From Dryococelus australis (taxonomy: Eukaryota; Arthropoda; Insecta; Phasmatodea; Phasmatidae): DNA of 64,000 nucleotides. The DNA lies in assembly GCA_029891345.1 (NCBI GenBank), contig CM057009.1, positions 285,520,966-285,584,965 on the forward strand. Direction: 5' to 3'. A model generated the notes under the pieces. It made no database searches. It was not told the origin of the DNA and was given only the letters and a program-made list of their open reading frames with translations. Positions 8,336-53,390 of this stretch are shown here, piece by piece; within the stretch, counting starts at the first letter, position 1; every line of letters begins with the position of its first letter. The position numbers and the translations under genes are program-made.

Positions 8336-8675
8336 GATATAGCCAAGATGGCCACTACAGATTGTGTTATTCCGTATTTAAGGTTGTTTTGGCTTGTGAT
8401 TAGTTCTAGCAATAGGTTTTTAATATACGTGGAGTAGTAGTTTGAGGTATAATTAGAGTTTAGATTATTGTTTTATGTGGTAATTAGTTATAAGGAGGGA
8501 GTAGTGTCCGATTGTGTGCACGAGGCCGAGGCCTTTGTTATTGTATGAGGGTAAAGGGTGTATGGTGTAAGTTTGGCTAGTTAAGAAAGTGTGTGTATAC
8601 GTAGGTATTTGGTGTAGAGAGTAGTTTTAGTTTTAAGTTAGTTAAATTATTTTTTTTAAAAGAGAGGGTAAAAAA

Positions 8676-10210: not shown

Positions 10211-10329
10211 CAATCAGTTAGAAGCAAGGTAATGGAAGGGGAGAGAAATGGAGAGGATAGCATTGATGAGGCCGCAGGGGTGGAGATAGGAGGTAAGCAA
10301 TGTAGGATGGTAAAGCAGAGTACTAGTAT

Positions 10330-11035: not shown

Positions 11036-11499
11036 GAGGAGACAAGGGCGCAGAAATATTTCTGAGAGACAGGTTTAAAAATTGGTCTATGGAGGAGGGT
11101 GTGGAGGTGTTGTGGAGGGAGTTTAGAGGATTAATGGAGGTTATTTTAGAGAAATTTGTGCCAATGAAAAGGTTACGGACTGGGGGAGATCCGCCATATT
11201 ATGGACAGGAGATTTTGAAAATGAAGAAGTGCAGAAAATTACATGCCAAGTGGAGAAATGAAGGGATGATAAGATCTAAACAAATGATGAAACAAATGAG
11301 TAGGGAGCTTGAAAGTAAGATCAAACAGGCAAAGAATATATTTCTGGGTAACATGGTGGAAGAAGGAAAAGGCAAGGCATGGGGGAAATTGTTTAGGTAT
11401 GTTAGGAGGTTAAGAGGAGAAGAGGAAGGGATCCCGCTGCTAACAGGACAGGATGGTAGGCATGCAAGAAATGACCAAGAAAAATTGGAGCTGAGGACA

Positions 11500-18959: not shown

Positions 18960-19835
18960 TTCCTTATATCATTCTTGTTCTGCATTATAGAAATTTATCT
19001 TTATGTAAGTATTCTTCTACGGAATAGAAGGCCACATTTAATAAGTATAATTTAACAGCTCTTTTTAATTTCTGTAAACAATTAATTTACTTCAAAGGAC
19101 TGTGTAGGTTATTTATTAGTTTTGCCCCTGCATAGCATGGATTTGATGTAAATTTTGGTGTCCTGTAGGAAAATAGGTGAAGATGATTAGCTTGTCTGAT
19201 GTAGTAATGATGTATATCACTACTTTAATGTTTTCCATGTAAAAAAGAATACTACGGTATGGTGCATGTATGGAAGAGTGAGAATTTTGAAATTTTATAA
19301 TAGCAGCCTACAATGACTTATTTTTCCTTATTACTTATTAATCTCACTATTTTCTTCTCTAATCTAAAAGCCTTTTTCCATTTTGTTGATTTACCCCAAA
19401 ATATGATTCCATAATTTATTATGGACTGAATATTTGAGAATTAGTATTCAAGTATTGTATAATTAGTACAAATATTTTTTAAGGTATGCACCACAAAACA
19501 CATTGAATTCAATTTTTTACAGACACTATTATAATGCTCATTTCATGTTAAATTTCTGTCTACAATGAGCCCGAGAAATTAGGACTATTTACTGTCTGTA
19601 GCCTGTCTTCTTCTATTGTTGTGCATCTTGTATCCTGCATTTTATGTTTTTTTCTCTGCATGAAATTCATGAGCACATATTTGTTTACATTTAATATTAA
19701 TTTATTATACTGGATCCAACTAGATATCTCAGTCACTGTTTGTGCACAAACCGTGTACTTGGTCTGTTGTAATTGACTCTTTGGCCCGAGATCAGAATAG
19801 TTTCCGGTAAACATCATTGCAGCATCCGTATAAGA
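18960..19835 (-). pseudogene. C-terminal RT fragment of another Jockey-like LINE
   Basis: Reading the minus strand from 19835 down, the decayed catalytic box reads YTDAAMMF (normally FADDxxxx), followed by EISSWIQYNKLILNVNKY, then FWGKSTKWKKAFRLEKKIVR and PCYAGAKLINNLHSPLK further down. This is the complete order of the palm end, thumb and C-terminal tail of a Jockey- or CR1-type ORF2, with at least three frame breaks. Its sequence differs from the plus-strand LINE next to it, so it belongs to another family. Confidence 0.8.
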
Positions 19836-19883
19836 ATTTGTGTATATTTAGCATGGAAGCTTCAGTGTTGTGTCCGAGCAGAG

Positions 19884-20650
19884 TTAAAATGTAATGCTCA
19901 AAAACGGCATCGGGTTTGAAGACTTTCTCAAAAACTTGAACAATAAATTGTACAAAACATCGTCCGATTCCGGCGTATTTTGTACTTCGGGACTCGCGGG
20001 AAAATCATTTTGCTTTTGCACTTCTACACATGTATGTTCGGCAAGCGCGAACGCTAGGTAGAAACTCTTCACTGGTACAAACTATATATGCAATAGCGGG
20101 ATTATCTGATCAAATTCAGTCACATAGAACCGGAAAATTAATTTAACAATGGAAACCATGTTTACTTGGTTGGGTTTTTCCATGAGCCTGAATACATCTC
20201 GAGTAAAGTCTTCGATAATTTTCAGTGATTTATTCGTCAGGTAACTCGCAAAAATTTGGTTTTGTTGGTTGATTATCGCCGAATGTTCGCCCATTCATTT
20301 TTGTAGAATTTAAAACATGTAAAAACAACTTTTCGTAAAATTGTTTAGATCTTGAACTGTGGATATAATTGAATCGATTTTGAGTTTCGGGTTGAAGTTC
20401 AACAGAGCTTCATAGTTGATTATACCATCGTGTAGAAACGAGTCGATTTTGACAATTTTTTTAACATTTTTACATTGTACGTGAATATGATATTGACGTT
20501 TGAAAGTTTGTATTCTCAAATATCCAACAGTTTAATATATTCGTCGCTCAGTTTGGCATATTTTTTACTTGAATTTGAATCGAATGATTACTTAAAAATT
20601 TAAATTCATAAAAATCATTCAAGGCAATGTCGATAGTAGGAGTCATTTGA
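19884..20650 (-). pseudogene. Unknown decayed gene
   Basis: Three consecutive minus-strand frames (20519-20310, 20294-20082, 20072-19884) are separated by single stops and short gaps and look like one broken protein of about 220 residues or more. It is rich in Ile, Asn and Phe, with no domain I recognise. Because it sits next to a lipase-like fragment in the same orientation, it could be cellular or viral in origin. The product is unknown. Confidence 0.4.
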
Positions 20651-21190
20651 GTTGTTATGTCCAATTACTTAAATGACATTATACATACATCTCGCCTAAT
20701 TAAATTTGTAACATTTTTCTTATAAACTCGCTGTTCCATAAAAAAGTGTGGCTGAGTGGAGAGTGGTCGTTTATTAAGAGCACTTTTAGTTTTAGAGAGA
20801 TATTTAAACACGAGTCTCTTATGGAGGCCGTCCCATCGCCAAGGTCGAAAAAATTAAATTGGAAACATAAAGTGACCCAGTCTGAATTATTTTTCTCGCG
20901 AATGGCGGGCCATCTTGCATCTAGTGGCAGGGAATTGTTTGCCACACAATTCATTTCGAGATTGGTGATTGTAGCATAATATTAATTTGTAATGACTACA
21001 TAGCGACCGAATGTTCCTCATTTAGTGCAATTGAACAACCTTTCAACCATCCCGTGAAGCTCGACGACACAAGTTTTAATAGAGTAGTTTTAAAAAATCT
21101 GTATGGTAACAACACAAAATTCTTTCAAAATTGCCAGTAGAGTGCTAGTAATTGATCTTTAAAAAACAAATTGTATTTGGACTTGGCTGT
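20651..21190. other. No gene recognised
   Basis: Overlapping frames exist on both strands between 20700 and 20980. Neither has a recognisable domain, and the longer minus one is low in complexity at its ends. I do not call either. Confidence 0.3.
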
Positions 21191-21193
21191 ATC

Positions 21194-21600
21194 TTATACC
21201 AACAAGGATAAAAGCAAATCGTCGAAAACATTTTTGAAATTTTGCAAACCGAATAAAGGAGCACCTACGAAAAATACACATTTAACATATTTGTAAAATT
21301 CCGCATTGTAGTAAATTTCCAATATTATTCGCACCAGTGAACCACCTAAAGAATGGCCCACTATGAAAATTTCCAAAGGAAAAGAGTATTTCGACGAGTA
21401 CTTTTCCATCGAAATTTTTACCGAATATGCAGACTACAATAAATCTTTGCACCAATAGTAGACATTTCCTTTAATTTTAACTTTCCGAACATTTCGATAT
21501 AAATTAGAAATGAAAATTGAATATACAGATTTTCCCCACACGGAACGTAGCACTTTGCCGGGTTATAATAAATCGTAATTTAATAGTCGCTGAAAATATT
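21194..21600 (-). pseudogene. Alpha/beta-hydrolase (lipase-like) fragment
   Basis: The frame at 21409-21194 carries IFIVGHSLGGSLVRI, the nucleophile elbow GxSxG of lipases, about 18 residues in. It is followed by VKCVFFVGAPLFG, the strand and loop expected after it in class-3-type lipases. Upstream sequence to about 21600 continues in related frames with several stops. Catalytic Asp and His are not identified. It is a broken gene. Its origin is open: host retrocopy or part of the same viral insertion suspected at 35.7-43.9 kb. Confidence 0.55.
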
Positions 21601-21609
21601 TATCCGATA

Positions 21610-22078
21610 TTTTTCTGAAAGGAAACAATTTGTTTGGAAATTTATTTTTTTTAATTTATTGTCTGCAACTAGCGAAGATCAGTATAATCCTAGCAATAGA
21701 AATATAATTTTATTAGACATTGTTTTACACAAATACACACAATCACGAGAAATGAGTTTTAAAAAAAATATGTATAAATACTTACATGTACCTACTGATG
21801 AAATAATGCATGGATACTTACATGTAGTTGCCATATTGTGATCTGCACAGAATACATAATCCATTTTCTGGCTTCTAGATTGATGGCAAATACAACAAAT
21901 TCTTCGCAATAACAGAGCAGAAAGTAATCATGTTGTTCTCACCGTAATGAGAAGACATTAAGTGAGTGAGTTGAAATGTCGGAACTCGGAGGAGAGGTGA
22001 GTGTGGCGATTATGTGATATCACGCGTGATGACGATGGAGGGGGGAAATTGGAGAAGGGTAATTGGAAAGAGGGGTCA
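21610..22078. other. No gene recognised
   Basis: AT-rich to about 21960, then a purine-rich G/A stretch leading into a tandem repeat. No coherent coding frame. Confidence 0.35.
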
Positions 22079-22271
22079 AGCATGCCGAATGGGTGAGGGA
22101 TTAGGTTTTTTTAAAAAAAAGGAAAGAGCGATGCGAATCACACTCCAAATATGGTAATAAGATAAACCAAGCATGCTGATTGGGTGAGTAAATAGTTTTA
22201 AAAAAAAACACAAGAGTGTGGGGAGAGGGAATAATAATGTCATGCTCCAAATATGACGATGAAATAAAACA
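22079..22271. repeat. Two tandem copies of a 91-100 bp unit
   Basis: GCATGCCGAATGGGTGAG near 22080 recurs as GCATGCTGATTGGGTGAG near 22171, and CTCCAAATATG recurs at 22143 and 22243. Each copy contains an A-run hairpin. Confidence 0.7.
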
Positions 22272-22339
22272 AGTGTGTGATATTGATGGAAGGAGAAGTA
22301 GGAGAATTATCCCAGTGATCCAGACAGTTATGAGCACGA

Positions 22340-23210
22340 CATTCTCAAATCGACTATGAGGTTCGAAAAATGCAGGGAAGGCGAAGCGAAATTGGTGGAA
22401 AACAGAGGCTTGTTTTACTGGTGCCGATAGCGAATGGAGGACGGTACTAAATGCAACCAGTATCGGCGAGATAGGGCAGTTTCATGGTAGAATCAAACTT
22501 GTCTCTGGGCAAGATAGTCGAGTTGTGTTTACTCTGGTGCCTGACCAAATACCCTCGACAGCAGACCTTAGTGAACGAACTTTTGTGCTTGGGAAAGACG
22601 GACGTCGACTGGTCAAGATTCTGCTGCCACGTGTGCATAGACTGGGTGTTGATGTACAGGAAACACATCGGCGGGCCGGGCAAAGTGGTTGAGATCGACG
22701 AGTCGAAATTGGGCAAACGCAAGAACCACAAAAGACATAAAGTTCACAGCCAGTGGGTTTTCGGGGGAGTGCAGCGGGACGATCAAATTAATTTCTTCTT
22801 GGTGCCGGTGGAAAAGAGGAACTTGGCAACCCTGGCCAAAATCATTCACGAGTGGATCGCTCCGGGCACAACGATAATTTTAGACTGCTGGTGCAGTTGC
22901 AGCAACTTGGACATTCACGGCTACTGTCACATGCAGGTGAATCACGGGAGGGAATTCGTGTGCAGCAAAAAGAGGGGTATGGTAAACATTTGAAACACTA
23001 TAACGATGAAGATGGGCGAGACATTGAGGGTGTTCTGTGTGATACTTCATTCCCTGCTTTGGCAGATGGAAAATTTGGGTCGGCTACCTGGCCGAGAACA
23101 TCTGGAAAAACAATCATCCTTACGACTGCACGCTTTGCTGATTCATGCTGCCGACATGCACCATTGTAACCGGCACAGAGAGATGGAGGCGAAGGATATC
23201 CCAATTTCGA
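22340..23210 (+). pseudogene. ISXO2/Merlin-type transposase, broken
   Basis: DDE transposase of the IS1595/ISXO2 group, which in animals corresponds to Merlin-type DNA transposons or genes domesticated from them. The main frame (22484-22993) holds VVEIDESKLGKRKNHKRH with the first catalytic Asp, SQWVFGGVQRDD, FFLVPVEKRNLATLAKII, then GTTIILDCW with the second Asp, and VNHGREFV. The upstream part with a possible zinc-binding region (22340-22480) is in other frames. Downstream, the block expected to read NTIE has NTIT at about 22995-23006, so the last acidic residue seems lost. No terminal inverted repeats were identified. It is more GC-rich than its flanks. Confidence 0.85.
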
Positions 23211-23239
23211 CAGGTATCTGTTTGTTACGGTTGTTTTTA

Positions 23240-23900
23240 ATTTACAGGCATGAGCGAGATTGAGTTTCTGTTGCAGTTGCGGTTTTAAAATTGTTCATTG
23301 AGTTGCTGTTGACATTGCAGTATAAAATTAAAGTGTGATTGACTTGCTGTTTGTTTCGGTTTAAAGTGTAATTGACTTGCTGTTTGTTACAATTTTAAAT
23401 TAATGTTAAATCGAGTTGCTGTTTGATTCTATTTTAAATTAATGTTTTATTGAGTTGCTGTTTGATTCAAACATAAATTAATGTTTAATTGACTTGCTGT
23501 TTGATTGAAATTAAAACTAATGTTTTATTGATTTGTTTTCTGAGTTAATTTACAGGTGCGGATGAGACAGTGTAGCTGTTTGTTTTATTTTTTAAAAATG
23601 TGTATTTGAGTAGCTGTTTGATTCAAGTTTAAATTAATGTTTAATTCAGTTGCTGTTTGATTCAAGTTTAAATGTATGTTTAATTGAGATGCTGTTTAAT
23701 TCAAATTTTAAATTAATGTTTAATTGAGTACCTGTTTTATTAAAATTAAAATTAATGTTTAATTGAGTTGATGTTTGGTTTAATTTACAGGTGCGAATGA
23801 GACACCATAGTTGTTTGTTTCAGTTAAAAAAAGTTTGAATGACTTACTCTTTCTATCAGTAAAAAAAAAAATATGTTCGATTGATGTGTTGTTTGAGTAA
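23240..23900. repeat. 39-bp minisatellite with higher-order structure
   Basis: A unit of about 39 bp (GAGTTGCTGTTTGATTC, then a T/A-rich part with AATTAATGTTT) is repeated about a dozen times with drift. Every 240-300 bp a variant containing TTTAATTTACAGG followed by a GATGAGACA-like part interrupts it (about 23240, 23545, 23785), suggesting a higher-order repeat. It starts directly after the transposase remnant. Confidence 0.8.
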
Positions 23901-24661
23901 ACAGTCATTCGCTATCTGGAAGAAAGCCTAAATTAGTCGAGTATGTCGTGTTGGGTTTGTCTGGCGACGATGGGTTTACTTGCATCTGTTGTATCCGCAT
24001 ATTGTTAACACATTGTTACCGTTGCCCCTTCTGTGTAACCAATGTATTAGACGAATCGACCTTTACATATTCAGACAAACAAAATCGGTTCACCTAAATA
24101 TGACACAGTGTGTACTCGCCGCACAAAGCCTGCATTTGTACATTAATTTAGTATCGAATGACAGAATTATTTCAATAAGTATTATGTGATCAGTGTTTAA
24201 AATATACTTTAAATTATGTTACAGTTTGTATCATCGTCTTATAGAGGGGAACAAGTGATTTGTGCCATTGGGTGAGCCGATTGAAACGCTGGCAATGCAT
24301 CCTGCATGCCGCAACTGGGGCAAGTTGACTACACCCTGAACTCAGCATGTGTGTGACGCAACAGGACCAGGCTACCCGAGGTGCCCGCCCAGCCTTCCTA
24401 GCTGTCGCCATGCAGGGCGACCACTGCAGCACAGCCGGGGATGTGGAGAGGGACTCCTTGGCCGCCAACCACAGAAACTGCACCGCACCTTATAGACACA
24501 ACTGCTTTGTGCTCTCCACTGCAAGGTGCAGTTGGCACCAGCGCGCGGGCATGAGTCATGCCCGGTGCATGCATGCTACCATCGCCATGGCAACTCCAAT
24601 AGCTGGCCCATCTCGAGCCAAGGAGTGAGGAGCTCGCCTTGCTCACTAGGCGGCCAAGATT
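23901..24661. other. No gene recognised
   Basis: From about 24290 the sequence becomes clearly more GC-rich than its flanks and leads into the env-like gene. It may be leader or promoter sequence of that retroelement, but no LTR ends were found. Confidence 0.35.
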
Positions 24662-26400
24662 ATGCCGGCACTATGTTTTGTTCTGCCAGCTGCTCTGACG
24701 GTGCCAACTACATACCGAGTTCATGCCGGGGTCTACTAGGCCCTGGCTGATGTTGACTTTGCTAATGAGGAGAGCATACCCCTCATTTATACAATTCCAT
24801 TACATTTTCCACAAACCCCTCAATCCCTGGACCAATACTTGCATATAGTTTGCGCTGATCGATCATCCAATTCTTTTAAGAGCAGAAAGATTATGTATGA
24901 TTATTTACAGGAAGTGGAACGGGGAGTTATCCAAGAATTCCTCGACGATCTAAGTACCCACTTCCACCAGAAAAGAGGTATACAGCTCCTCGGCGATGTG
25001 GGAACGGGATGCTGTAATATCGTAACAAATAAGCACTGTTGTGCTTTGCTTGAAAATGATGCCCTGTTTGATAGTCAAATTCAAACCCTCGCCGACAACA
25101 TTCACTTCACAAACAATGCCCTTAATCCAACCTAAAGGTAATTAATGAAATTGACCACAGCATTGCAGGAAAAAAGCAATTCCTTATCAGAGACTATCAG
25201 TGGTCTATCTCAAGTTTTGAAAACCCAACAGTCCACCATAAGCAATTTGGATAATATTGAGCTAAAATTTACATTGCTATCCATAATCCTTCTGCTATCG
25301 ATAAACAATGTTATTATTCAAGAGTTGATACAAACTTATATTCACTCATGCCAACTGAAGAGGCTTCCACTGAGTGCAGTAAAAAAAACACAGTTGTCTA
25401 ACAACCTAACCAAATTATATTTGGAATTACAAAAATTGAATCTTAATTTAAGAATGGGTATGAATAATATCATTAAGTATTACACACGACTTGACCGAGT
25501 GTACCTTCACCAACAAACAAATGGTTATAAAATTGCAGATCTCATTTATTCGTATTCACTCTAGATGGCAAATATATAACGTAATCCCTTTTCCCTACCA
25601 TTTTGAAAATCAGACATGCACAATTCAGATTCCATCAACCATCGTTTATATTGATCCAACCACAGACGTAGTCAAACCCGTATCACATTAACCCGACATG
25701 CCCCTGGATGTTATAGCCACCCCTATGGAATCACTTACATGTGAAAACTTTCAATGTACCAAAGCAGCCATTTTACTCCCAGATGCCAATGCATTATTTT
25801 CTAAGTGTACATTTCAGTGCTCACATGACATTTCATTCTCCATTCACCATATCCTTCCACAACAGTACGCACTCACCAATTTCCCCCCCCTGTCCATTAC
25901 CTCACACAATGGTAGAATTAATAATTTTAAATTGGGTACCGTCGAAGTACATGTACCGTGTGGATGTCTTATAGCCATGCCTGATCAGATTATTGTCGAG
26001 GCCACACATCTGTGTGATGTTCATGCACCCACAGTCCCACTGCAGCAAACTGTGATACATGTACACTGGCTACACCAGCATTCTTTTTACCTGCAGCAGT
26101 AGTTAACTCAAACAGCATGGATACAATATTATAACGTCAGTTATGCTCTCGACACAAACTGGCAGATCAATCACACTCAGCTGCCAGTCCTGCCAGCACT
26201 TCAGCCAGTTTAATCGCATGGTAAGTTCAGCGACAACAGACTATTTTATGTGTTGGACCCAGTTTATTATGACTACATAACCATGGGTATAATCAGTCTG
26301 CTTTTATTCACCATAGTCACTATGAAATATAAAACTCCTCAAGCTCTGTGTTATATTATCTCGCCAACAAATAAAAACTTAAGCGAGAAATTACATTTAA
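24662..26400 (+). pseudogene. Env-like membrane glycoprotein of a retroelement (broken)
   Basis: An orphan coding region of about 1.7 kb over at least three frames. It begins with an ATG and a hydrophobic stretch, MPALCFVLPAALTV, like a signal peptide. Next comes a part with TGCCNIVTNKHC, then a helical heptad region (25145-25300, with LSETISGLSQVLKTQQS), a Cys-rich ectodomain (25590-26100, with VHVPCGCLIA) and finally a membrane helix near 26281-26330 (MGIISLLLFTIVTM) with a short basic tail. This topology is that of a type I viral or retroelement envelope protein. No pol lies beside it. Family is uncertain, and I did not recognise the baculovirus F layout seen in the other env here. Confidence 0.5.
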
Positions 26401-27949: not shown

Positions 27950-29570
27950 TAGGTTCTGGGTATGGTGTGGTATGTGTGGTAGAGGTTTTGAGTTTTTTTT
28001 AACTATTGTTTCAATATGTTTATTTCCTCTTGGAGTTTGATATGGTGAGTATTGTAGTGCCTCCATTTTCTACCCTATCCTATACACTTAACTATTGCTC
28101 ATGTTAGGTAGCTGCTTACAAGTGAACTCAATATCTAAGAACACTGTAGGAATGGGAGACACTAAGGGGGTGCGCAGTTCTCAGTGGTTACTCTAATAAG
28201 TTAAGAACTCTTTATATAAAACACATTTATTGCAACATCAAATTATAATTGATATAAAACAATGCAAACAACTGTGCATAGAATAATATTCTTCAATGAC
28301 TCTTAACCAAAGTGGTAATATTAGGAAGTACAAACATCTAGCAATGAGTAAAAGTTAAAGCCTTAGCCTTGCCAGAAATTAATGTTCATTTACTCGAATG
28401 ATTAACAGGACCTCGAGAACTAGGATGATACCTAACTGCCAAGCCGAACTTATGCTAACCATATACTTTAGATTGCTGAGCGGCCCAGAGCTCCTCCAGA
28501 CCTAGGAATCGAGATGCCCCCATCTTTGCTGTTGCTCTGACAACTTCATGCTGTTCTTCTTCGGTCCCACACATCAAAATTGGGGAGCGGGCACGGTGTG
28601 CTCAACCTTTATAGTCTGCTGGCAGTGGGTCAATCGATGCATGTTATGGCAACAGGAAGCTCACACAAAATGTATAGTCCATGATAACTCGTCGTGTGAG
28701 GCCCCTTAGCATCCACCACAGTATGTTGAGTGTCCTTTTCAATGATTTGTTGGTGTCTGTACATACCAAGCTCAATGTTTTTGATGTTGTTTATCAACTG
28801 GCTCAATATGTTGATTGCGAATGGTACAAGTTTGCTGGCAATGTTTGGTAACAGAGAGGTCCAAATGATTTATACAAACTCTGACTCTGGTAATTGTTGG
28901 TTACACTTGTTCTTCTAGAAAGTCAAATCTTCAATGTGTGCTTGAGTACTCTGGTCTTGATGTTGTTTTGTTTTGTGTAGAAGCTGTCTGTAGAGGTCTT
29001 GTGTGTCGAATTTTCTGAATGTTTACTATAGTTTGTCTTTAATATGTTTCCACGAGATTTGTTCTACACTAGCGTAATATAGGTTCCCGTAGGTCCTCTT
29101 TTCTGTCCCTAACAGATAGGACTTTATGTACAGTTGTTTTTCAAGGTCTGGCAATTTATTTAACTCACTGATGGCATTAAAATGATCGAAAATTCCTCCA
29201 CATTTTCGCGATTCTCTCCTGTCAATGTGGGGTTGTAGTGAATTTATAGTATAACAATGTGTGCTGAGAATGTTGTTGCTGCTTGTTTAGCAGGTTATTT
29301 ATGGTGTTGTCCGTGTTCGCAACAGTAATGGAAATTGAATGTGTCTGTGTTTTTGAAGGTTTTGGCATGTACGTGGTGTCAGGTATCCTCTTGTACCAGG
29401 CTGGTTAATTGTTGATAGGTGTTGGTGTTGAGAAGTGTGTCCAAGAGATGTAATGTGTTCTGTGTTATCTCTGGTAAACTGGGTTCTCAACTGATCATGT
29501 AATTTAACTGCACATTTATTATCACCTAAATTAACCAACTGAGTTTTTACTAATTTTATTATGCTGTGTG
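27950..29570 (-). pseudogene. Retrotransposon Gag remnant split by a solo LTR
   Basis: From 29570 down to 28730 the minus strand encodes a Gag-like helical region with LPDLEKQLYIKSYLLGTEKR, ISWKHIKDKL and NKCNQQLPESEF, in several frames. The solo LTR at 28053-28720 interrupts it. Past the LTR the same frame continues with an amphipathic helical segment until a stop near 27985. The continuation across the LTR, counting one copy of the GTAT duplication, shows that the Gag was already there when the LTR arrived. No pol follows. Confidence 0.6.
28053..28720 (-). repeat. Solo LTR, 668 bp, with 4-bp target duplication
   Basis: It begins TGTAGTGCC and ends CCACCACA on the plus strand, with GTAT directly on both sides (28049-28052 and 28721-28724). 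It aligns along its full length with 30270-30949. A 4-bp duplication is typical of Ty3/gypsy integration. Orientation is inferred as minus from the surrounding Gag and the second LTR's primer site. Confidence 0.75.
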
Positions 29571-30269: not shown

Positions 30270-30949
30270 TGTAAGGCCTCCCTTTTCTCTCCTATTCTAT
30301 ACTGCTTAACTATTGCTCCTGTCGGGTGGCTGCTAATAAGTGAGCTCTATACCTATGGACACTGTAGGAATGGGAGACACTAAGGTGTGCATAGTTGTCA
30401 GTGGTTACCCTAATAAGTTAAGAATTCTTATATAAAACATGTTTATTATGTCGTTAACTAATATTTGATATATAACAATACAATCGACATTGCACAACAC
30501 AATATGCTTCAATGGCCCTTAACCAAAGTGGAAATATTAGTTAGTACAAACATCTAGCAATAAGTAGAAGTTAGGCAATAGCCCTACCAGATATTAACGA
30601 TCATTAACTCGAACAGTTAATGGGACCTCGAGAACTAAGATGATACCTAACTGCGAAGCCGAACTTATAATCATCATATACTGAAGACTAATGTGTGGCC
30701 CCGAGCTCCTCCACGCCTAGAAATTGAGATGCCCTTGTCTGTGCTGTCGCCTTGACAAATTCACACCGTTCTTCTTCAGTCCCACACATTAGTCCGGCAA
30801 GGGGGGCGGGGGTGGCACAGCAGGCTCACCCTTTATAGTCTGCTGGCAGTGGGTTGATCGACACGTATTATGGCAACAGAAGGCTTGCAAAAAATGTTTA
30901 GTCCATGTTACCTTAACCAGTCATGTGCAGCCCCCTAGCTTCCGCCACA
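30270..30949 (-). repeat. LTR of the same family as 28053-28720
   Basis: Starts TGTAAGGCC and ends CCGCCACA, about 680 bp. It shares long blocks with the solo LTR, such as ACACTGTAGGAATGGGAGAC and GGACCTCGAGAACTA. No target duplication is visible. Its place upstream of the Gag remnant and a PBS-like sequence make it the likely 5' LTR of that element. Confidence 0.75.
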
Positions 30950-32983: not shown

Positions 32984-34250
32984 GTGACCATTACAATGAA
33001 AATCCGGGACATCAAGACCACGACAACTGCCGTTGTGTCAAATGACATTAGGGTATACGTAATTTCTGGTGTACCCTGGCTAACTGATCAACATACCATC
33101 ATCGGGAAGAAAGAATGCCGAACGGTGTCTAACTTTGATCCACTAACATGCATACGAGCTCCACCAGTATTGCTAGATTAACTGGACCACTCAGTGCCGC
33201 CAGAGTTCCGGGATGCAGTACAACAACTGTTGAACTAATGAAGGGATGTTTTCATGGCGGCCGATCCTTTGCATCAGACAACTGTAGCTGAACATTGCAT
33301 TCCACTAACCATTGACGAACCTATATTCTATCTGCCAAGTCGATACTACCCTCACCAGTGTAAAATCATCAACGACCAGATCGCCGAGATGCTGCAGAAA
33401 AGCATGATCGGGACTTCAGAAAGTCATTTTAAAACTGCCATAACACTAGCTCCGAAAAAAGATGGCTTGTGGAGGTTCTGTGTTCATTTCAAGTGCCTCA
33501 ACCTTGTCACAGAAAGTGCTCTGCCACATTACATTCACATAAAGGACGCCCTGAACACCTTGGGCTTTGCCAAAGTGTTAACCATGATCGATCTGGGAAG
33601 TGGGTATTGGCAAATACCGATATGGCCAGAAGATCGCCATAAGACCACCTTCAAAATACCAGATGGACAGCACTTACAGTTTTGTGCTATGCCATTTGGC
33701 CTGAATTGAGCTTCCTCTACCTTTCAGGACATGGTAATCCCTGTCCTGGATTGTTGTTTCGGTGAATTTGCCTTGGCCTACTTAGATGACATCATAATCT
33801 GTCCGGAGTCAAGGGATGGCCACCTCCGCAACCTGACACTGGTCCTTGAGTGACTCGCCATAAACAAACTTACTTGCGCGAACAGAAATTGTCTTCAGGG
33901 AAAAGCCAGCATTCATTACCTCGGCCGCGCAGTCGAAGAATATGGGAGCTGCACCATATCAGAACAACTTCAGCTGATGGGAGAGTACACTGTCCCGACC
34001 ACTTGCCCACTGCATCACAAGTTCCTTGGGCTTGCAAACTGGCTGCGTGAATATGTGCTGGAGTTTGCTACAGTGACTGCCCCCTTCACCAAGCTGATGT
34101 CTTCCAAATGTCTGGTTCCAGTGGACAACAGCACAACAAAACAGATTTGATGAACTCAAATGCCATTTCCAGGAGTGTCCTATGCTAGCCCACTATGACC
34201 CAGCAAACTACATCTATGTGCTAACATCTGTGAGTGAAAAAGGACTGGGG
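32984..34250 (+). pseudogene. Gypsy-C protease end and reverse transcriptase
   Basis: The segment GVPWLTDQHTII (about 33069-33104) is the typical region after the protease. RT follows at 33254-33709 with LAPKKDGLWRFCVHF and MIDLGSGYWQIPI. A stop follows FGLN, then the catalytic YLDDII is intact at 33779-33796. The connection region near 34010-34090 reads FLGLANWLREYV. Stops at 33707 and 33850 and frameshifts make it inactive. Confidence 0.9.
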
Positions 34251-34620
34251 ACAGTGCTATTTTAAATGTTAGAAGACTGAATGCAGAAAACAATTGATTT
34301 TGGAAGCACTTTGTTCGGAGCAGTGGAGCATAGGTAGGATGTAAACGAGCGCGAGTGCCTCGTAGTCGGCCGCAGCCTAAAAAGAAACATCAGCTGCGCA
34401 AAAATCAATGCTTCACCCCCTGAACTGACAACTGCTGTTTGCTGTGGCTACACAACACCTGAGAATGCCACAGCAAACTGACCCAGTGGGCTCTGTTCCA
34501 CTAGTCCTTCGAGATTGAGGTGCAACACATGGCAGGTTACGACAACCAGCTCGTCCACCACCTATTACATTCGCCAGGAGATATCATTGCGTAAGACGAA
34601 GAGGAGTGGAAAGACATATT
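34140..34620 (+). pseudogene. Gypsy-C RNase H remnant
   Basis: Reads with FDELKCHFQECPMLAHYDP followed by SVSEKGLGTVLF, which corresponds to the start of the RNase H fold (the expected DASD-type Asp reads TSVS here). Further down, NERECLVVGRSLK corresponds to the ERECLA-type helix. Several stops. It is the usual neighbour between RT and integrase. Confidence 0.75.
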
Positions 34621-34759
34621 GAACCCCCCTCCTCATGTGCATGATACATTCATCGCAAGAACCAGTACACTGCACTTACATCACAGCAGTGTAGCTGGTG
34701 CAGCTACACTCATGCTGAATACGCTCAGAAATCAGTTAATAGGTGAACAAGACAAGTGG

Positions 34760-35690
34760 CTATTAGCCAGTGAATGGAAACAGAAATGTATGCAACAGAT
34801 GATGGATAAGTGGCGTGTTGTCAACAACTGCTTAATATCACGGGCACATGTAAACAGTGAAATGTGGTGTGCTTATGTTCCTGCCACAACGCGCAATGCA
34901 GTTCTCGGCTACATACATGTCAGTGAGCTGGCAGGACATCAAGGGACAAATCAGACACAGAATAACATTACCCAGCACTCTCATTGGCCCGGCATGATCA
35001 TACATACTAGGGCGTTCGTATGCTAGTGCGTAAAAATTAAATACTACAAAAGCAGACGACAAGAATGACTCCAACAACAGAATGCCAGAGAGACGATAGA
35101 ACTATTAGAAACTGTGGTAATAGATCTCACGAGATTCTATCTATGAACAAGATTAATTTGAAACAGAGACAATAGATCTGATGGGAACCTATCGAGGAAA
35201 GAAATTCATCTTGGTCGTGACAGATTTATTTTCCCGCTGGGTTGAGGCTGACCCACTCTCCAATGCACAAGCCTGTACAGTGGGGAAAACATTACACAAC
35301 AAATTCTTTATGAGCTGTGTCTATCCACGTGTATAATTATGTGGCAACAGCACACAGTTCACGGGATGTGTGGAGAGATTTGTGTACCAATGAGGCATAA
35401 CACACTATAAAACAGCAATCTACCATTCATGGCTAAACTCTACTGAATTCAATAATCAAGACTTGAAAACACAACTGTGTTTGCGCGTAGATGAGGATCA
35501 CGATTCCTTGGCCGAGAACCTGCTTACTGCTCTGTTTACGCTCCACCGCAGTATGAACCAGGCAACCAGCAAAACACCGGCACAGATGCTGCAGGGGCAT
35601 TACCACCCCCCTCCACAACACAACCAACCGGCGAATTCCACAGCAGGACACAAGAGTGCAACAAAAAAATAGGAAAGACCTCCCGCAAAA
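34760..35690 (+). pseudogene. Gypsy-C integrase (decayed)
   Basis: The zinc-binding start appears near 34905-34995 with HVSELAGHQGTNQTQ and HWPGM. The core begins near 35170 with IDLMGTYRGKKFILVVTDLF (first catalytic Asp), then CGNSTQFTG near 35341, where the second Asp of the DNGTQF block is lost. It ends with MNQATSKTPAQMLQG near 35550-35595. Stops and shifts throughout. Confidence 0.85.
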
Positions 35691-35696
35691 TGTATT

Positions 35697-38404
35697 TGGA
35701 TCCAATGTTTCCAACACGAAGAGGATCTCATTACTAATTTTCTCTTTTGGTATGGTCAGGGATACTTGCTAAAAATGCTAACGGGATACCAAAATTAGCC
35801 AAATTATTTTGTCGGCCACAACATTTTCGAATACGATTTTAAAATTATATCGACACGATTGTGGGTTCTAAAAATGCAATGCGAAATAAAAGCATTCGTA
35901 ACCCTCGGAAAATAGGCCACTGCTTCACTTACTCGTTTTCACCGCGACAGTATCATATTCGATACATTATTGATCTACAAAAATGCATTGACCAGCCAAA
36001 TTTTGCCCCTAGGGAACCTGTCTAAAAACTATCTGAGCCAAAAGTTTAGAAAAATCGATTTGAACTCGGTGCTCATGCGTATTGATTATATTCTCGGCAA
36101 CACCATCACAGCCGATGTGTTTCGGGAAAAGTGCAGGAGAAATATATTTCACATCGACCCCTACAACAAAGACACGTTCGATGCCATGAATACTTAGTAC
36201 ACAAACATGCAATTGCATCGGACTGAGTACATAGGCAGTAGCATTTCGTGGAAATTTAAGGGCGAAACAAACACAGACTATATTGTTTTCGACCACATGG
36301 AATAGTCTTTAATTTACGAAAGGGATTGTGGGGCCGTGGTCGGATTTAACAACAAGTTTAATATGGCAATTTTCACCAACCAGTTGGCCAATCTCTTCAA
36401 CTGTGTTTAACTGTTCGGTGAGTGCCATTTCTCGCCAGATTGCGAACGTATTCCTGTATCATGCACTATCTTTTCGTATGTTACCAGGATACCAGAACAA
36501 CGCTTCTGTTTTACTGGCTGGGCCTGATCTGAAATGTTGGTAACTCGCCGAAAGAACATATGCGATGGAGGTTAGACAAATTTACACCTAACCAAAGTTC
36601 AAGTACACGAAAAAAGAATATCGAGGAGCCATAGTTGTTGCGAACCACTGTCTTTTTTGGAATTTTTCAATACTATGTCAATTTTTTTCTACCTAAACAT
36701 CATCATCAACAAACGACTTTCCAGATCGACCATCGGCTGCTGCTATGCCAAAGTATTGAATCTCATATTCGAAAACCCTACAATATCCCGCGATTCTTTC
36801 GACGAAATTCTGAGGAACGATGTGATTGTTTTGTATGTGACAGAAGACGAAAACCAAAATTATTCGGAGTATGTAGACCTGATGTATTGCGGCCAGACCA
36901 TTGGGAGAGTAATACGTTCTATCACGGAACTAAAGTTGTTGGCTCACGATACTTTCATTCTGATTCGTTTACTCTCATATACCAAAACTCCATTCACTTT
37001 AAACTTTATAGTCTCTTTACTCGACTTTAGGAAAACCGTAAAGAAAAAAAAATCTCTAAGGTCTGAAATGCAAAAAAAAAAAAAAAAAAGTCTCTGAAGA
37101 GAGGATTCAAAACAAAAAACTAGAGTACTTTGGTGTTGTATGCGAAGCAACTTTCGCTTAAAATTATGGTCAACTCGACCTACGGGTTTTTCGACACTAT
37201 ATTTCAAGTTCGTCAGCATTCCTGTAACAATAGGTACAACGATGTTTACACAGAAACTTTTCATACATTTATGTCGAGTTACACCCATACAGTATCTACT
37301 GCACGCGATTTGCGATCACAAAGAAACTATAAACAACCTGATGGAAAAGGAGCTCATGCAGTTTGTATATTGCATTCGCCAATAAGCCTGTGTTACCTAC
37401 TCTAATTATGAAACGAATAAAAAAACTGATAGTACCCGATGAGGTGAAACTCTGTGCGGTTGTTCGCAAAATTCCGTGAGAATATCGCGCAATGGTCTTT
37501 GATGCAGATACCCATGGGTACCAGTTTACAAATATTTGGAAATTGGACAGTATCAGGTTTATTGAGCATATAAATGAGGAAATGAAACATAGACAACAGA
37601 AAGTGCATTGTTCTCGAAGGCACCGAGATACTACCATCCATTTCACTGGTGAAGAAAAAGTTCTTGCATTTGACAAAACTGATTGATTATGATGCATTTT
37701 ATAGTGATCTGAACCAAGATGTGTTGAAACTTTGTTCTGTTGTACATAAAGATTATGAGCGTAGTGCATCGTGTTTCGTGAAACGAATCTACAACTTTGT
37801 TCCTGCACTTGCCTTCTTGGTTGCGAATATAAACAAAATAACCAACTATTATAAATTGAAGAAATTTATTAATTTTGAAAAAAGTAATGTTTGCACTTAA
37901 AACTACCTCTATTTAGTAAACCAGACGGAATTGTACAAAAATGTTAAGTTGGATAGACCTAAGTACTTGTTTGCACATGAAAGGTACATTGATAGTCTTG
38001 GTTCTTCATACATTGGCCATAAGAATACGGTGCTCTTGTACGAACCCAAAGAGTTTCAAGCAGATTGGTACTTGATGTTGGAAAAGTATTCCAAATTACT
38101 GCCGAGACAAAAAATAAACAACATGCCATGGCCCAAAATGTATCAGATTTATTATGGCAAATATCTACACAATCACGCCAAAGTCATACACACAATTTTG
38201 AATGCTGCCTTACATCAGACGTCCATAAAAACCTATACAAAGATGGTCAACGATTTGTTTAAAAAATGGTTTGAAAGTTATAAATGTTATCTGACAGGCT
38301 ACGAAGTGCAGTTGGATATTGCAAATGGGAGATTTCCAAAAGAATTCAGTGACTTTCATTTACGATATGTCATTCATAGATCATGTAAAATTAATTGTAA
38401 AAAT
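35697..38404 (+). pseudogene. Family B DNA polymerase (viral type), broken
   Basis: Replicative DNA polymerase of the RNA-primed family B, as in large double-stranded DNA viruses. Motifs occur in order over 2.7 kb. Exo II is VGHNIFEYDF (35812-35841), followed by GNLSKNYLSQKFRKIDL. Motif A is VVGFNNKFNMAIF (36337-36375), with the catalytic Asp replaced by Gly. Motif B is KIMVNSTYGF (37159-37188). Motif C region is DADTHGYQF (37501-37527), with the second Asp replaced by His. A long thumb-like C-terminal part (37931-38404) follows. Stops and at least three frameshifts break it. The start with Exo I is missing; the gene is cut where Gypsy-C ends. Which virus family is open. It differs from protein-primed Polinton polymerases in motif B. 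Confidence 0.82.
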
Positions 38405-38576
38405 AAATAAATAACTTTATTTTTTATAAAAAATATAAACGATACTGTACATATGAAATTTTTTAAATTGGAAGTACTACATCTGGCTTGACTTGATCAC
38501 CCCTTAGACAAACCCACATTTACCACATGGTTGATAATCAATTTTGAGTAATTCCTCTGTGAAGGTTCCATTTGTA

Positions 38577-39462
38577 TTAGTTTTTTTTCAAGTTCACAAC
38601 AAAAACACATATGTCGAAAAACTCACAGTTGATAGACATAATGACTGCATCACTGATGGATGTGTCAAATGCACTATTGATGGATGTGTTGGTTAGACAG
38701 GTATTGACTGCATTGTACACAGCCTCGCTGTTGAGGAAAATGTCAACTGTGTTGTCCATAGCCTCCTTGTTGAGGAGTGCGTTGAATGTGTTGTCCACAG
38801 CCTCGCTATTGATGAATGTGTTGCCTGCATTGTCCACAAACTCAGTGTTGACAGATGTGTTGACTGCATTGTCCACAACCTCGCCATTGATGGATGTGTT
38901 GACTGTGTTGTCCATAGCCTTACTGTTAAGGAACATGTCGACTGTGTTGTCCACAGCCTTGCTGTTAAGGAATGTGTCGACTGAATTGTCCACAGCCTTA
39001 CTGTTGAGGAACGTGTCGACTTCATTATCCATAGCCTCACTGTCGAGGAACGTGTCTACTGCATTGTCCACACCCTCACCATTATGGATGTTTTGATTGT
39101 GTTGTCCACAACTTTACCATTGACAGATGTGCTGACTGCATTGTTCATAACCTCACGATTGATGGATGGGTTGACTGTGTTCTCCACAGCCTCGCCTTTT
39201 TGATGGATGTGTTGACTGCATTGTCCACAACCTCATCATCGATGGACATGGGGATATAGACTCCATTGTCATTCACCACTTCATGTTTGATTAATGTGAT
39301 ATTCACAGTCAAACATCCCGCATCTGCCAACCCCTTCTGCAAAACTTCGTCCATCGCGGTCGAATGAGTCTCATCCAGTCGTCCTTCTTGCAATTGTATA
39401 AACTTTAATAAATTAAAGTACAAAAGTGTTGGTATCCGAATGCGACAATTCATTCTTGGCAC
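38577..39462 (-). pseudogene. MADF-end-like protein with 13-residue tandem repeats
   Basis: Reading down the minus strand, the first 40 residues include PTLLYFNLLKFIQLQEGRLD, resembling the end of MADF (Myb/SANT-like DNA-binding) domains, where a PxLWYF motif leads into a helix. A spacer follows, then about 14 copies of a 13-residue unit of the form DNxVDTFLNSEAV (39 bp each) from about 39250 to 38690. A frameshift near 39185 moves the repeats between frames, although they stay coherent. The first half of the MADF domain lies in the next item upstream. Function unknown. Confidence 0.5.
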
Positions 39463-39514
39463 ATTTTATTTTTTAAACTTCAGTAACTAGGAATCACATC
39501 GATACTTCATCCGT

Positions 39515-39712
39515 CTACTTACTGTTTGTCAATATCACGTTCTCCATAGACCATGGTAAATAAAGTAATTCTCGAAATCCTTTATACCTCGAACTTCTGG
39601 ATTTGTACACCTGTTTGTTTCTATTCCACAAAGATTCGTGTTTTCTGTAAACGTGAATAAAATCACTTACATAGTCCTTGTGAAGATACCATTTGGAATC
39701 CATATCTTCCAC
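39515..39712 (-). pseudogene. MADF-like domain, N-terminal half
   Basis: A 65-residue frame with DFIHVYRKHESLWNRN followed by YKSRSSRYKGFREL. The pattern of a first helix, a conserved LW and then a K/R-rich second helix ending in W or F is that of the MADF domain (DNA-binding, often in transcription factors and transposon-derived genes). The frame ends at a stop just after a GTAAGT. The second half of such a domain begins about 60 bp downstream. The likely full item is one gene, but the joining frame is not conserved. Confidence 0.5.
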
Positions 39713-40549: not shown

Positions 40550-41420
40550 AACGATTTCAGTAGCTGGCATAACAAAGTGTGCAGTAGAGTAGGAAGGATG
40601 AGGGCTACCATCTCGAACATGTTCTTTGCAGCAATTTTGTTGTTTTGCCCAAAAATATCTGTGTGCAGAAAGTACCATTTTGTTCGCCGACGAGTACATC
40701 AGAAGAATCGTCCACAGTGAAGGTGATTGATGATAATTCATTTTTGGTGCAGCAGAAGCAGGTCATCAAAGAAGAATGATATTTTGTATTTGTCAAATTC
40801 CTATGGCAAGGGTATGTAGAAGTTACTTTCGAAGGCCTTTTTTCATCATGGGCATCACTTCAACATCACAAGTAATCGTTATTCTGTGGAAAAGTCTCAA
40901 ACACAAGACAATAAGTTGATGTGTACCAATTCGACCGATGGAAAAGACATTCTCATCAACATGTATAGTGGGGAATACAATGTAACAAAGTAATTACATA
41001 TTATATCGTTATTGTAAAAAGGAATATTATTGTAAATTATAAAATGTTGTATATGTAAATGTAACAAAAATAAATAAATGTAGTTGAATGTATTTGTTTC
41101 TTTTTTTTTTTTTTTGTGTATAAGACTCCAAATAAATATATGGGAAGTTTGCAGAGTTTTCAAAACAATAACAATTTAAATGGTGTAAATTTTAAAAAGG
41201 GGTCTTTTGAAATTTCAGAAGATGACAATCCGAAATTTTCTTCCTAAATTCTAACATGGTAAAATTAATTGATTATAAAAATATTTACAATTTTACAAAA
41301 TTTATCATCTTTGAATGTATACTTGTTTTCTAAACTGTACGGAAAAACTTCTGGATAATTTATATCATGAGAAGGCAAGAAAAAATGGATATGGGATTAA
41401 CCCTACTAAACAAAGATTCT
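40550..41420. other. Weak coding traces, nothing callable
   Basis: Short frames near 40590-40770 on the plus strand alternate in protein-like fashion, but no single one is convincing. AT-rich with T-runs near 41100. Confidence 0.3.
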
Positions 41421-41429
41421 TAATCATAT

Positions 41430-42175
41430 CACAACGTTTACACAAATTCTAAACAAAATATGCGATTTCTAAACATTCTAACATTGGCCTATTGGCAAAC
41501 GACCCACACCCCATTATTTGTGCACTAAACCAGATTGCACTCAACCATTTCATTTTTTATATGATATGGATTCAGATTCCTGCAGGAAAATTGCCGACAT
41601 AGCGGAAATCGAATCAGAAAATAGACTAATATTTCTAAATCTACACGAATTCAAGTCACTTAAAGTTTCTCTACATCGTTCGAGATTTAATAATACCGAC
41701 GTATTGTTTAAATACAAAAATTACATAATGGCCATCGCATCGAATTCATTAAAAAAATTGCCAAAATAATTAATAGTTTTGACAAAATACCCTATAATAG
41801 CAAAACTGGATTTGCGAAATTGCAAAAAATTTACAATCTCATTCGGCTGTATAGTTAGCCTGGTTGATGTGGGATGTGGGCTCTAATTCGGGTCATTGTG
41901 TAAAATATGATTTTGGAGGATGTGTGGTTTTCGTGATGAAAAACATGAGCGTAAATAATTCGATTATGAAATTAAAAAACGTGGTGACTTTACAATTATT
42001 GTAAAGAGACCACATTATTATTGATGCCCGCAGACACCCAAATCGATTGTGATATTGCCGATGGGTTGGTTTGGTGCATAGAAAACTACCACGAATTAAA
42101 GTTGGTGGATCCTAGAATTGTTCATGTAAAAGCTATCAATAAAATGCGAAATTCGTTAAACTTGAACAATTAATT
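41430..42175 (+). pseudogene. Unknown broken gene, viral neighbourhood
   Basis: Protein-like pieces follow one another in shifting frames: the 84-residue frame at 41518-41769 (with IAEIESENRLIFLNLHEF), then VGSNSGHCVKYDFGGCVVFV near 41870-41930, and IDCDIADGLVWCIENYHELK near 42040-42100. Together they suggest a protein of about 230 residues. No family recognised. Confidence 0.4.
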
Positions 42176-51315: not shown

Positions 51316-51448
51316 CTGAATACTCCCACTCAAATACGAGCAAATATGGTGTACCATCAACCTTAAATCCATAGTAAACTTTACTACAAGAATAGAAGGA
51401 ACCAGTGAGACAACAATTGATAACATTTTAATTGACAGTAACTCAATA

Positions 51449-53390
51449 AGAATTCTCTAAACCAAATAAAAACTACATGGAAGAATATGGTAAAAAACAC
51501 AACAGGAAGAACAACAGAGCAATGTCCAGTTGTAAACCTTAAAGTAAATGACTACATATCCTCAGACCCTAAATTAGTCTTAGAAAAATGTATACATACT
51601 ACTTAAATGTTGTAGAAAACATGATTTAAAAAACATTAAACAAGATATAAACCATATTCCTATACGACAGGGCACAGAATACCCTGCTATATCTTTTACA
51701 AACACAACTCCAAAGGAAGTGAAGAAAACAATCAATTCTTTGCAACCAAAATTATCTAGCGGCTATGATGTCATTACCTGTAGGTTATTAAAGCAATGCG
51801 CTTTTGAATTCAGTGTTCCACTAAGCCATATTTGCAATAACATCTTCAATACAGGATTGCATCCAGACAGACTCAAATGGGCTATGTTAACACCATTGTT
51901 CAAGAAGGGAGACAAGACAATAATTGTAAACAATTATATACCCATCTTACTTATTACATCCTTTTTTAAAGTGATTGAAAAACTAATTTACAGGAGGTTG
52001 CTGCAAAATTTTAAGAATCACAGTTTGGCTTTCGGAAAAACACATCTACAAATGATGCAATTTTCAAACTAACAAATAGTATTGTTAATGCACTTGATAA
52101 AAAGATACTACCTAAAGGAATATTTTGCATCCTCACTAAAGCATTTCACTGTTTAAATCACAACATACTTATAGAAAGATTAAAGTTTTATGGAGTCTCA
52201 GGTTCACAAAATAAACTAATACGCTCATACTTTTCAAACAGACAAGTTCGGATCAAAGGAAACACTACTTCATTCTACTCTGAACCAGGAAAAATCAAGC
52301 CTGGGGTCCCACAAGGATCAATATTAGACCCCCTACTCTTCCTAGTTTATATAAATTACCTTCCACATGCATTAACCCCAGAAACTACTCCAATTTTTTT
52401 GCAGATGATTCTAGCATATTAGTCTCTGGATACTCAGTAAATGGTCTTATACAAAATTGGATACAAAATTTACAGAGCTAAATGCATGGTTTTGTGGAAT
52501 CAAATTAAATCTCGACTTAGATAAAACGTCTAATGAATTTCCTCTTAAAAGAATAGAGAAAACCTCAATTCATATGTTAGCAGTAACATACAAAATGAAT
52601 GAAACTGCAGTGATTAAGTTTCTTGGCTTAAAAGTAAACAATTTACTTAACTGGAAATCTCACATTGCATATATTTTACCTAAACTATGTTCAGGATGTT
52701 TTGCCTGCGGAGTGCTGCAGAGGTCTTGAACAAAAATACAGCAAAAATGGTATATTTTGCATATTTTCATTCAATGTTTTATGGTATAACGTTTTGGGGT
52801 AATTCCACTGACAGCAAAAAAGTGTTTCACATGCAAAAGAGAGCTGTAAGAATAATCAATGGCAAAAGAAAGTCAGACTCATGTAGACATATTTTCAAGA
52901 GCTCAGAGATTTTAACACTTGCACGTAAGTACATGTTTTCAGTATTTACATTCATGTCCAAAAACAGTTATTTATTTAAGAAAAAGGAGACCTTTCATAA
53001 AGATGACACTAGAATAAAAAAAAACCTTTACAGGTGGCTTCAGTTAACTTAAAACATGTCCAGAAAGGCCATCCTACCTTGGTAGCCAACCTTTCAGTAA
53101 ATTACCACAACACCTTAAAGAAATTTGCTTCTATAACCAAAAGCTCTTTAAGAAACAGCTGAATGATTTTTTTTTCAAAACTAATATTTTATAGTGAAGA
53201 TGAATATCTAAACTAAAATTTAAGTAATTATCGCGTTACATGTCTTTGTACACATATCTTGTTCCAGTATTTCTCGTTTCCTTTTTCTTCTGTTTCAGCA
53301 AATCGATGACTTCCCACAGCATGTTGGAGGAGGATTGGCCAAATTATGAGGAAAAAAAGATGTTATGCGTTTACATATAGTCTGACACAC
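51449..53390 (+). mobile_element. Jockey-like LINE, copy 2 (5' truncated, dead)
   Basis: Very close relative of 16480-18790, starting about 370 bp further 3'. RT frame at 51719-52072, same frame break near 52019-52043, motif A again CILTKAFHC (52126-52152), FADDSSIL intact but shifted, C-terminal tail to about 53060. Ends with GGAGGAGGATTGGCCAAATT and a CA/TA microsatellite. Copy 1 has a stop in ITCRL that copy 2 lacks, so they have diverged since they split. Confidence 0.9.

What the first reader, a model, noticed from the sequence alone, without database searches (positions are those of the whole stretch)
35697..38404. Decayed family B DNA polymerase of large-DNA-virus type in an animal genome
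Exo II, motif A, motif B and motif C occur in the right order and spacing over 2.7 kb, with DNA-directed (RNA-primed) rather than protein-primed features. The catalytic Asp of motif A is Gly and the second Asp of motif C is His, so it is dead. Few animal lineages carry such genes; endogenous nudiviruses, nimaviruses and relatives are the obvious comparison. That family assignment is inference.
Basis: partly seen in the sequence, partly recalled or inferred. Interest (0 to 1): 0.88.

Follow-up and report, generated by a model that had tools for sequence, protein, structure and literature searches.

The report
Fossil virus polymerase in stick insect
A broken DNA-copying gene in a stick insect's genome belongs to a large, very abundant element that seems to travel with a gene known from insect and shrimp viruses, so the genome appears to be strewn with remains of an undescribed DNA virus.

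Summary
Window 35.7-38.4 kb (+) is a decayed, 5'-truncated family B DNA polymerase (PolB), split over three frames. Window pieces give weak Pfam hits (DNA_pol_B 0.088, exo1 0.037); other copies in the same genome pass both cut-offs.

The host is Dryococelus australis, a stick insect. The C-terminal piece has 150 scored matches there, itself included (668 candidates). Of 20 fetched copies, 19 have a convergent MADF gene; in 3 of 3 upstream stretches an IS1595/Merlin-type transposase lies 11-12 kb upstream.

The genome also holds 145 above-cut-off Baculo_p74 (PIF-0) matches. 25 of 145 lie within 100 kb of a listed polymerase, 17 of them downstream on the same strand (shifts: mean 1.6 and 0.4). 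LEF-8 gave none (inconclusive).

Best reading: a fossil of an amplified, naldavirus-like endogenous virus. Cellular and Polinton origins are disfavoured. Virus family, element ends and mobiliser are unsettled. No close relative was found in the collections searched.

The parts
35673..35795 (+). Likely PolB exonuclease piece upstream of Exo II (frame 2), directly after the Gypsy integrase
   Evidence: Read by eye. Collinear DNA homology with other copies begins at about 35607-35707. No Pfam hit.
35799..35915 (+). PolB Exo II piece, GHNIFEYDF (frame 2)
   Evidence: DNA_pol_B_exo1 E 0.037, the only hit; tblastn match in 18 of 20 copies.
35919..36194 (+). PolB exonuclease piece (frame 2)
   Evidence: tblastn match in 18 of 20 copies; no Pfam hit.
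36576..37094 (+). PolB motif A region and fingers (LLDFRKTVKK)
   Evidence: Match in 19 of 20 copies; aligned with 8 copies; copy L036 passes DNA_pol_B, 29.6 bits against cut-off 23. No Pfam hit for the window piece itself.
37124..37402 (+). PolB motif B piece, KQLSLKIMVNSTYGFF (frame 1)
   Evidence: DNA_pol_B E 0.088, the only hit; motif B pieces match in 18 of 20 copies.
37480..37683 (+). PolB motif C piece (frame 0), second Asp replaced by His
   Evidence: match in 19 of 20 copies.
37586..37897 (+). PolB thumb-side piece with KKKF (frame 1)
   Evidence: match in 19 of 20 copies.
37901..38407 (+). PolB C-terminal piece ending at the stop codon
   Evidence: 150 scored matches in the genome, itself included (668 candidates), E to 4e-67 beyond itself.
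38580..39712 (-). Decayed convergent MADF-domain gene; the 39-bp tandem array 38706-39246 falls within it
   Evidence: MADF 2.8e-4 at 39518-39712; tblastn match in 19 of 20 copies; long open frames in L028 (5.7e-9) and L026 (1.1e-8); array.
40838..41153 (.). Further collinear block of the element
   Evidence: blastn to 15 of 20 copies.
41258..41915 (.). Block shared with one fetched copy only (L027)
   Evidence: 80.7% over 670 columns.
19739..23999 (-). Upstream block of the element, inverted relative to the polymerase
   Evidence: Collinear in reverse with upstream stretches L030, L031 and L032, 3 of 3.
22475..22990 (+). IS1595/ISXO2-type (Merlin-like) DDE transposase piece inside the inverted upstream block
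   Evidence: DDE_Tnp_IS1595 6e-10; 69-80% identical pieces in 3 of 3 upstream stretches.
21197..21433 (-). Lipase_3-like piece inside the inverted upstream block
   Evidence: Lipase_3 4e-6; in 2 of 3 upstream stretches (L030, L032) and, at 55%, in L021.
33242..35669 (+). Gypsy-type RT and integrase fragment abutting the polymerase; not part of the family
   Evidence: RVT_1 1.2e-7, rve 0.0016; no collinear homology with the copies before about 35607.

Best explanation
The finding is a dead, truncated copy of the replicative, RNA-primed family B DNA polymerase of a large endogenous DNA virus of the naldavirus kind (arthropod viruses that carry p74/PIF-0). The element is present in hundreds of dispersed copies in the stick insect Dryococelus australis. 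When alive, the polymerase would have copied the viral genome (inferred from the family); the copies then decayed as host DNA. Shown: PolB identity, high copy number, shared neighbours, co-location with p74. Inferred: that polymerase, p74, MADF, lipase-like and transposase genes formed one viral genome, and how it moved. In the window a Gypsy fragment abuts the gene near Exo II, and an upstream block lies inverted about 12 kb away, so this locus is rearranged.
For: The PolB hits of window pieces are weak but fall on two successive PolB domains. Copies pass DNA_pol_B and DNA_pol_B_exo1 cut-offs. 20 of 20 PDB matches of one copy's open frame are DNA polymerases, all weak, E 0.03-0.81. 150 scored matches in the genome. 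Shared flanks. 145 Baculo_p74 matches, all above cut-off, none in 14 control genomes (the controls named are prokaryotes, so this is a weak control). 25 of 145 within 100 kb of a listed polymerase (1000 shifts: mean 1.6, max 7), 17 downstream on the same strand (mean 0.4, max 4). dN/dS of the C-terminal piece, window against 24 copies, median 0.36 (range 0.25-0.64), which suggests constraint before decay.
Against: 120 of 145 p74 matches have no listed polymerase within 100 kb (both lists are capped at 150 scored). The polymerase-p74 distance varies from 3 to 79 kb, and 8 of the 25 pairs are upstream or on the opposite strand. No p74 hit among 65 ORFs scanned from the fetched copies. No whole element and no ends were read. 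Named neighbours (MADF, lipase-like, transposase) are not virus hallmarks. No relative in IMG/VR or, for two short pieces, in the protein database.
Confidence: 0.83

Rival explanations
1. The element is specifically nimavirus-like (a relative of the crustacean endogenous nimaviruses) rather than nudivirus-, hytrosavirus- or baculovirus-like.
For: p74 is abundant while LEF-8, a subunit of the RNA polymerase of baculo- and nudiviruses (recalled), gave 0 matches. Many dispersed copies resemble the 22-477 copies per haploid genome reported for endogenous nimaviruses (PMC10871703, passages).
Against: LEF-8 also rang in none of 14 control genomes, so its absence is not shown. No nimavirus polymerase could be compared (one search found none in IMG/VR). 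The host is an insect.
Confidence: 0.4
2. A giant DNA transposon that carries PolB and other genes but is not a virus; p74 belongs to a second, independent family that lies in the same repeat-rich regions.
For: A transposase piece in 3 of 3 upstream stretches and a MADF gene in 19 of 20 copies. 120 of 145 p74 matches lie far from any listed polymerase.
Against: Co-location far above shifts, and 17 of 25 pairs share strand and direction, which a shared repeat-rich neighbourhood alone would not give.
Confidence: 0.13
3. A decayed cellular polymerase (delta, alpha or zeta pseudogene).
For: RNA-primed motif set; weak PDB matches include delta and alpha.
Against: Those matches are only 12-17 bits. 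Three multi-exon PolB loci stand elsewhere in the genome. High copy number with a shared neighbourhood.
Confidence: 0.02
4. A Polinton/Maverick or adintovirus polymerase.
For: Large multicopy element; a piece that reads like a Polinton polymerase by eye lies 3' of one copy (L035:9474-9989; no such Pfam hit).
Against: PF03175 below cut-off while PF00136 is above it. No rve hit among 65 ORFs scanned from copies; the rve hit in the window is in the Gypsy fragment.
Confidence: 0.02

Closest known systems
Endogenous nimaviruses of crustaceans (Kawato et al. 2023, PMC10871703)
   Same: Large DNA virus genomes in tens to hundreds of copies in an arthropod genome, described as giant transposable elements; different lineages carry different integrases (passages seen).
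   Different: Host is a stick insect. The transposase seen here is IS1595/Merlin-type, not a tyrosine recombinase or Ginger2-like. Insertion sites and ends are unknown. Nimavirus polymerase was not compared.
Endogenous nudiviruses and bracoviruses in insects (recalled)
   Same: Insect host; p74/PIF-0; large DNA virus origin.
   Different: LEF-8, a core gene there (recalled), gave no match (inconclusive). Many dispersed decayed copies rather than one or a few domesticated loci (recalled).
Teratorn (piggyBac-herpesvirus fusion; PMC10175614, abstract start in the listing)
   Same: A large DNA virus joined to a DNA transposon.
   Different: Different transposase type; a p74-type rather than a herpesvirus gene; fusion not proven here.

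Membership tests
Family B DNA polymerase, RNA-primed | DNA_pol_B and exonuclease domains above curated cut-off | tested here: met
   In other copies; the window pieces alone are below cut-off.
Family B DNA polymerase, RNA-primed | Catalytic Asp in motifs A and C (needed for activity) | tested here: not met
   The window copy lacks the motif A Asp and the second Asp of motif C: a dead copy. 6 of 8 other rows keep the motif A Asp.
Polinton/Maverick | Protein-primed polymerase (PF03175) | tested here: not met
   13.9 and 15.8 bits, cut-off 25.8.
Polinton/Maverick | Retroviral-type integrase in the element | tested here: inconclusive
   None among 65 scanned ORFs of copies; the element was not read whole.
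Naldaviruses (p74/PIF-carrying arthropod viruses) | p74/PIF-0 gene | tested here: inconclusive
   145 matches above cut-off in the genome, clustered with the polymerase, but none seen inside the window or in the 65 ORFs scanned from copies.
Naldaviruses | Other PIF genes (PIF-1, PIF-5) | not tested
   Searches not answered, machine busy.
Baculo-, nudi- and hytrosaviruses | LEF-8 RNA polymerase subunit (recalled as defining) | tested here: inconclusive
   0 matches, 3 candidates, but the control rang nowhere.
Nimaviridae | Polymerase groups with WSSV-like polymerases | not testable with these tools
   No reference sequence found; frames not joined.
Cut-and-paste element with an IS1595/Merlin transposase | Terminal inverted repeats and target-site duplications | not tested

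The most novel reading that the evidence does not exclude
Stick insects harbour an undescribed lineage of p74-bearing large DNA viruses that captured an IS1595/Merlin-type transposase and spread through the germline as a giant transposon, leaving hundreds of fossil genomes that make up part of the genome's large unclassified repeat fraction.
Probability: 0.3. Interest if true: 0.88.

Novelty: new variant of a known kind. Interest (0 to 1): 0.8.

Why it matters
Endogenous large DNA viruses acting as giant mobile elements have been described for crustaceans (PMC10871703). An insect with hundreds of PolB- and p74-bearing remnants would extend that mode to another arthropod class and give a fossil record of a virus lineage with no close relative in the collections searched. 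It may also help explain the host's repeats: the genome paper reports 1.56 Gb of repeats that could not be classified (PMC10268593, passages).

Tried and rejected
Searches that led nowhere: window pieces against IMG/VR (copy alignment); degenerate motif B patterns (none, one phage contig with no polymerase among the ORFs listed); phages (E 4-9 only); protein database with the C-terminal and motif B pieces (none; its length filter hides full-length relatives of short pieces); PDB with window pieces (nothing relevant). PDB with alignment A5 gave 7 weak matches, 2 of them DNA polymerases. AlphaFold of two pieces had mean pLDDT 40 and 43, and the fold search on one was uninformative, no match at E <= 0.001.

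Considered and rejected: cellular pseudogene, Polinton, chance motifs (see rivals). An early reading of GFNNKFNMAIF (about 36363) as Exo II was dropped for GHNIFEYDF at 35808. No ages are assigned. Pairwise K2P over 25 copies (300 pairs) has median 0.139; the window copy averages 0.255, minimum 0.213; L011 averages 0.247; L025 averages 0.434, probably because its upstream part is unrelated.

Full report
Observation. On the + strand of window 35.7-38.4 kb the motifs of a family B DNA polymerase occur in order, scattered over three frames: Exo II at 35808, motif A at about 36.7 kb, LLxxRK at about 37017, motif B at 37145, motif C at about 37495, KKKF at about 37645, and a C-terminal open piece 37901-38407. 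A motif-chain score using recalled cellular consensus motifs gave 131 against 109.4 (sd 5.6, max 127) in 200 dinucleotide shuffles, with wrong spots chosen for motif A and the C-terminal motif. LLxxRK with motif B occurred in 0 of 300 shuffles. Pfam names only DNA_pol_B for 37124-37405 (E 0.088) and only DNA_pol_B_exo1 for 35799-35915 (E 0.037). Both are below the curated cut-offs and weak alone, since many pieces were scanned (9 families at E <= 0.05 among 116 pieces). The motif A Asp is absent and the second Asp of motif C is His.

Host. A LINE protein of the window has its best relative (63%) in Dryococelus australis, on a contig of 180,213,210 bases. The window's assembly has a contig C7 of exactly that length, 3.415 Gb in total and a contig of 262,277,254 bases. 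The published D. australis assembly is 3.42 Gb with scaffold N50 262.27 Mb and 17 major scaffolds (PMC10268593, abstract start). C17, which holds the window, is the fourth longest of the contigs whose lengths I saw. That paper names Scaffold_4 as X (passage), so the window may lie on X (inference).

A multicopy family. The C-terminal piece has 150 scored matches in this genome, itself included (668 candidates), at 49-73% identity beyond itself. A PF00136 search found 33 stretches above cut-off: 13 are exon-like pieces of three multi-exon loci (cellular polymerases, by inference) and 20 are single stretches of 28.5-54.8 bits. Of these 20, six lie 0.6-0.7 kb from a listed C-terminal match on the same strand, and four more were fetched and carry every piece tested; the other ten were not followed. 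Copies pass DNA_pol_B (L036 29.6 bits, L037 23.8; cut-off 23) and DNA_pol_B_exo1 (L038 and L039, 23.8; cut-off 23), while the protein-primed family PF03175 reaches only 13.9 and 15.8 (cut-off 25.8). The open frame L010:4728-5636 finds 20 PDB sequences at E <= 10, all DNA polymerases, none above 17 bits: family B, but far from any solved one.

Anatomy. Of 20 copies fetched, tblastn finds the Exo II piece in 18, motif B pieces in 18, motif C in 19 and the C-terminus in 20. DNA homology between copies runs through nearly the whole 9.9 kb in nine of the 20 (L010-L013, L017, L023, L024, L026, L028, by my reading of the bins) and breaks off on one or both sides in the others; in the window it runs from about 35.6 to 41.2 kb, with a further block at 41258-41915 shared with L027 only. 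A convergent MADF gene follows the polymerase in 19 of 20; the 39-bp repeat at 38706-39246 lies within it. Three further upstream stretches (L030-L032, of copies L010, L019 and L026) match window 19739-23999 in reverse. That block holds an IS1595-type transposase piece (6e-10; in 3 of 3 upstream stretches) and a Lipase_3 piece (4e-6; in 2 of 3). From the coordinates the transposase lies 11-12 kb upstream of Exo II in those copies. So the window holds two parts of the element in opposite orientation, with Gypsy and other transposon debris between and around them; whether they come from one copy is not shown.

Virus link. Baculo_p74 (PIF-0) has 145 matches above cut-off in this genome (best 1.3e-14; 380 candidates, 150 scored) and none in 14 control genomes; the controls named are prokaryotes, so no insect background was tested. 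25 of 145 lie within 100 kb of one of the 150 polymerase places; 1000 circular shifts give mean 1.6, max 7. 17 of the 25 are downstream on the same strand (shifts: mean 0.4, max 4), at 3-79 kb; the other 8 are upstream or on the opposite strand (for some contigs the length used in the shifts was approximate). pif genes are what unites four families of arthropod large DNA viruses (PMC10271883, abstract start in listings). LEF-8 gave no match, but the control was silent too. No p74 hit was seen among the 65 ORFs scanned from the fetched copies. PIF-1 and PIF-5 searches did not complete.

History. Copies differ by median K2P 0.139 (25 copies, 300 pairs, window included); the window copy averages 0.255 with minimum 0.213, L011 averages 0.247 and L025 0.434. 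In the C-terminal piece dN/dS is median 0.36 for window against 24 copies and 0.67 (5-95%: 0.36-1.40) for 276 pairs of those copies. The likely reading is that the window copy comes from an older or separate sub-lineage, split while the polymerase was still under constraint, and that the copies then decayed. No dates are claimed.

Mechanism. Most likely, an endogenous virus with its own RNA-primed polymerase and a p74-type gene multiplied in the germline. The transposase may be its mobiliser, as endogenous nimaviruses use captured recombinases or a Ginger2-like transposase (PMC10871703, passages). It may equally be a passenger that inserted in the progenitor: the ends were not read.

Print. 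The listings of searches (each capped at 5 to 20 rows) show no paper on such an element in stick insects. In the D. australis genome paper 'virus' occurs 0 times and 'viral' once (that place was not among the passages I recognised). This covers only the held open-access library.

Noticed in passing
window 8656-12476: Long LINE on the + strand with a PHD-like ORF1 (by eye) and an RT ORF whose best relative (63%) is in D. australis; strong purine skew.
   Followed up: partly
window 24740-26099 (+) and 58386-58866 (-): ORFs that resemble Gypsy/errantivirus envelope by eye; Pfam named no envelope family for them.
   Followed up: partly
window 16845-18788 and 51444-53385: Two 88.5% identical direct copies of a LINE, 34.6 kb apart.
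   Followed up: no
window 28053-28720 and 30270-30949: Direct repeats of about 680 bases, 78% identical, 2.2 kb apart, perhaps LTRs of a small element.
   Followed up: no
L035:9474-9989: Reads like a Polinton-type (protein-primed) polymerase by eye; Pfam gave no such hit.
   Followed up: partly
L022 (two polymerase C-termini about 2.8 kb apart): Two family copies in tandem, same orientation.
   Followed up: no
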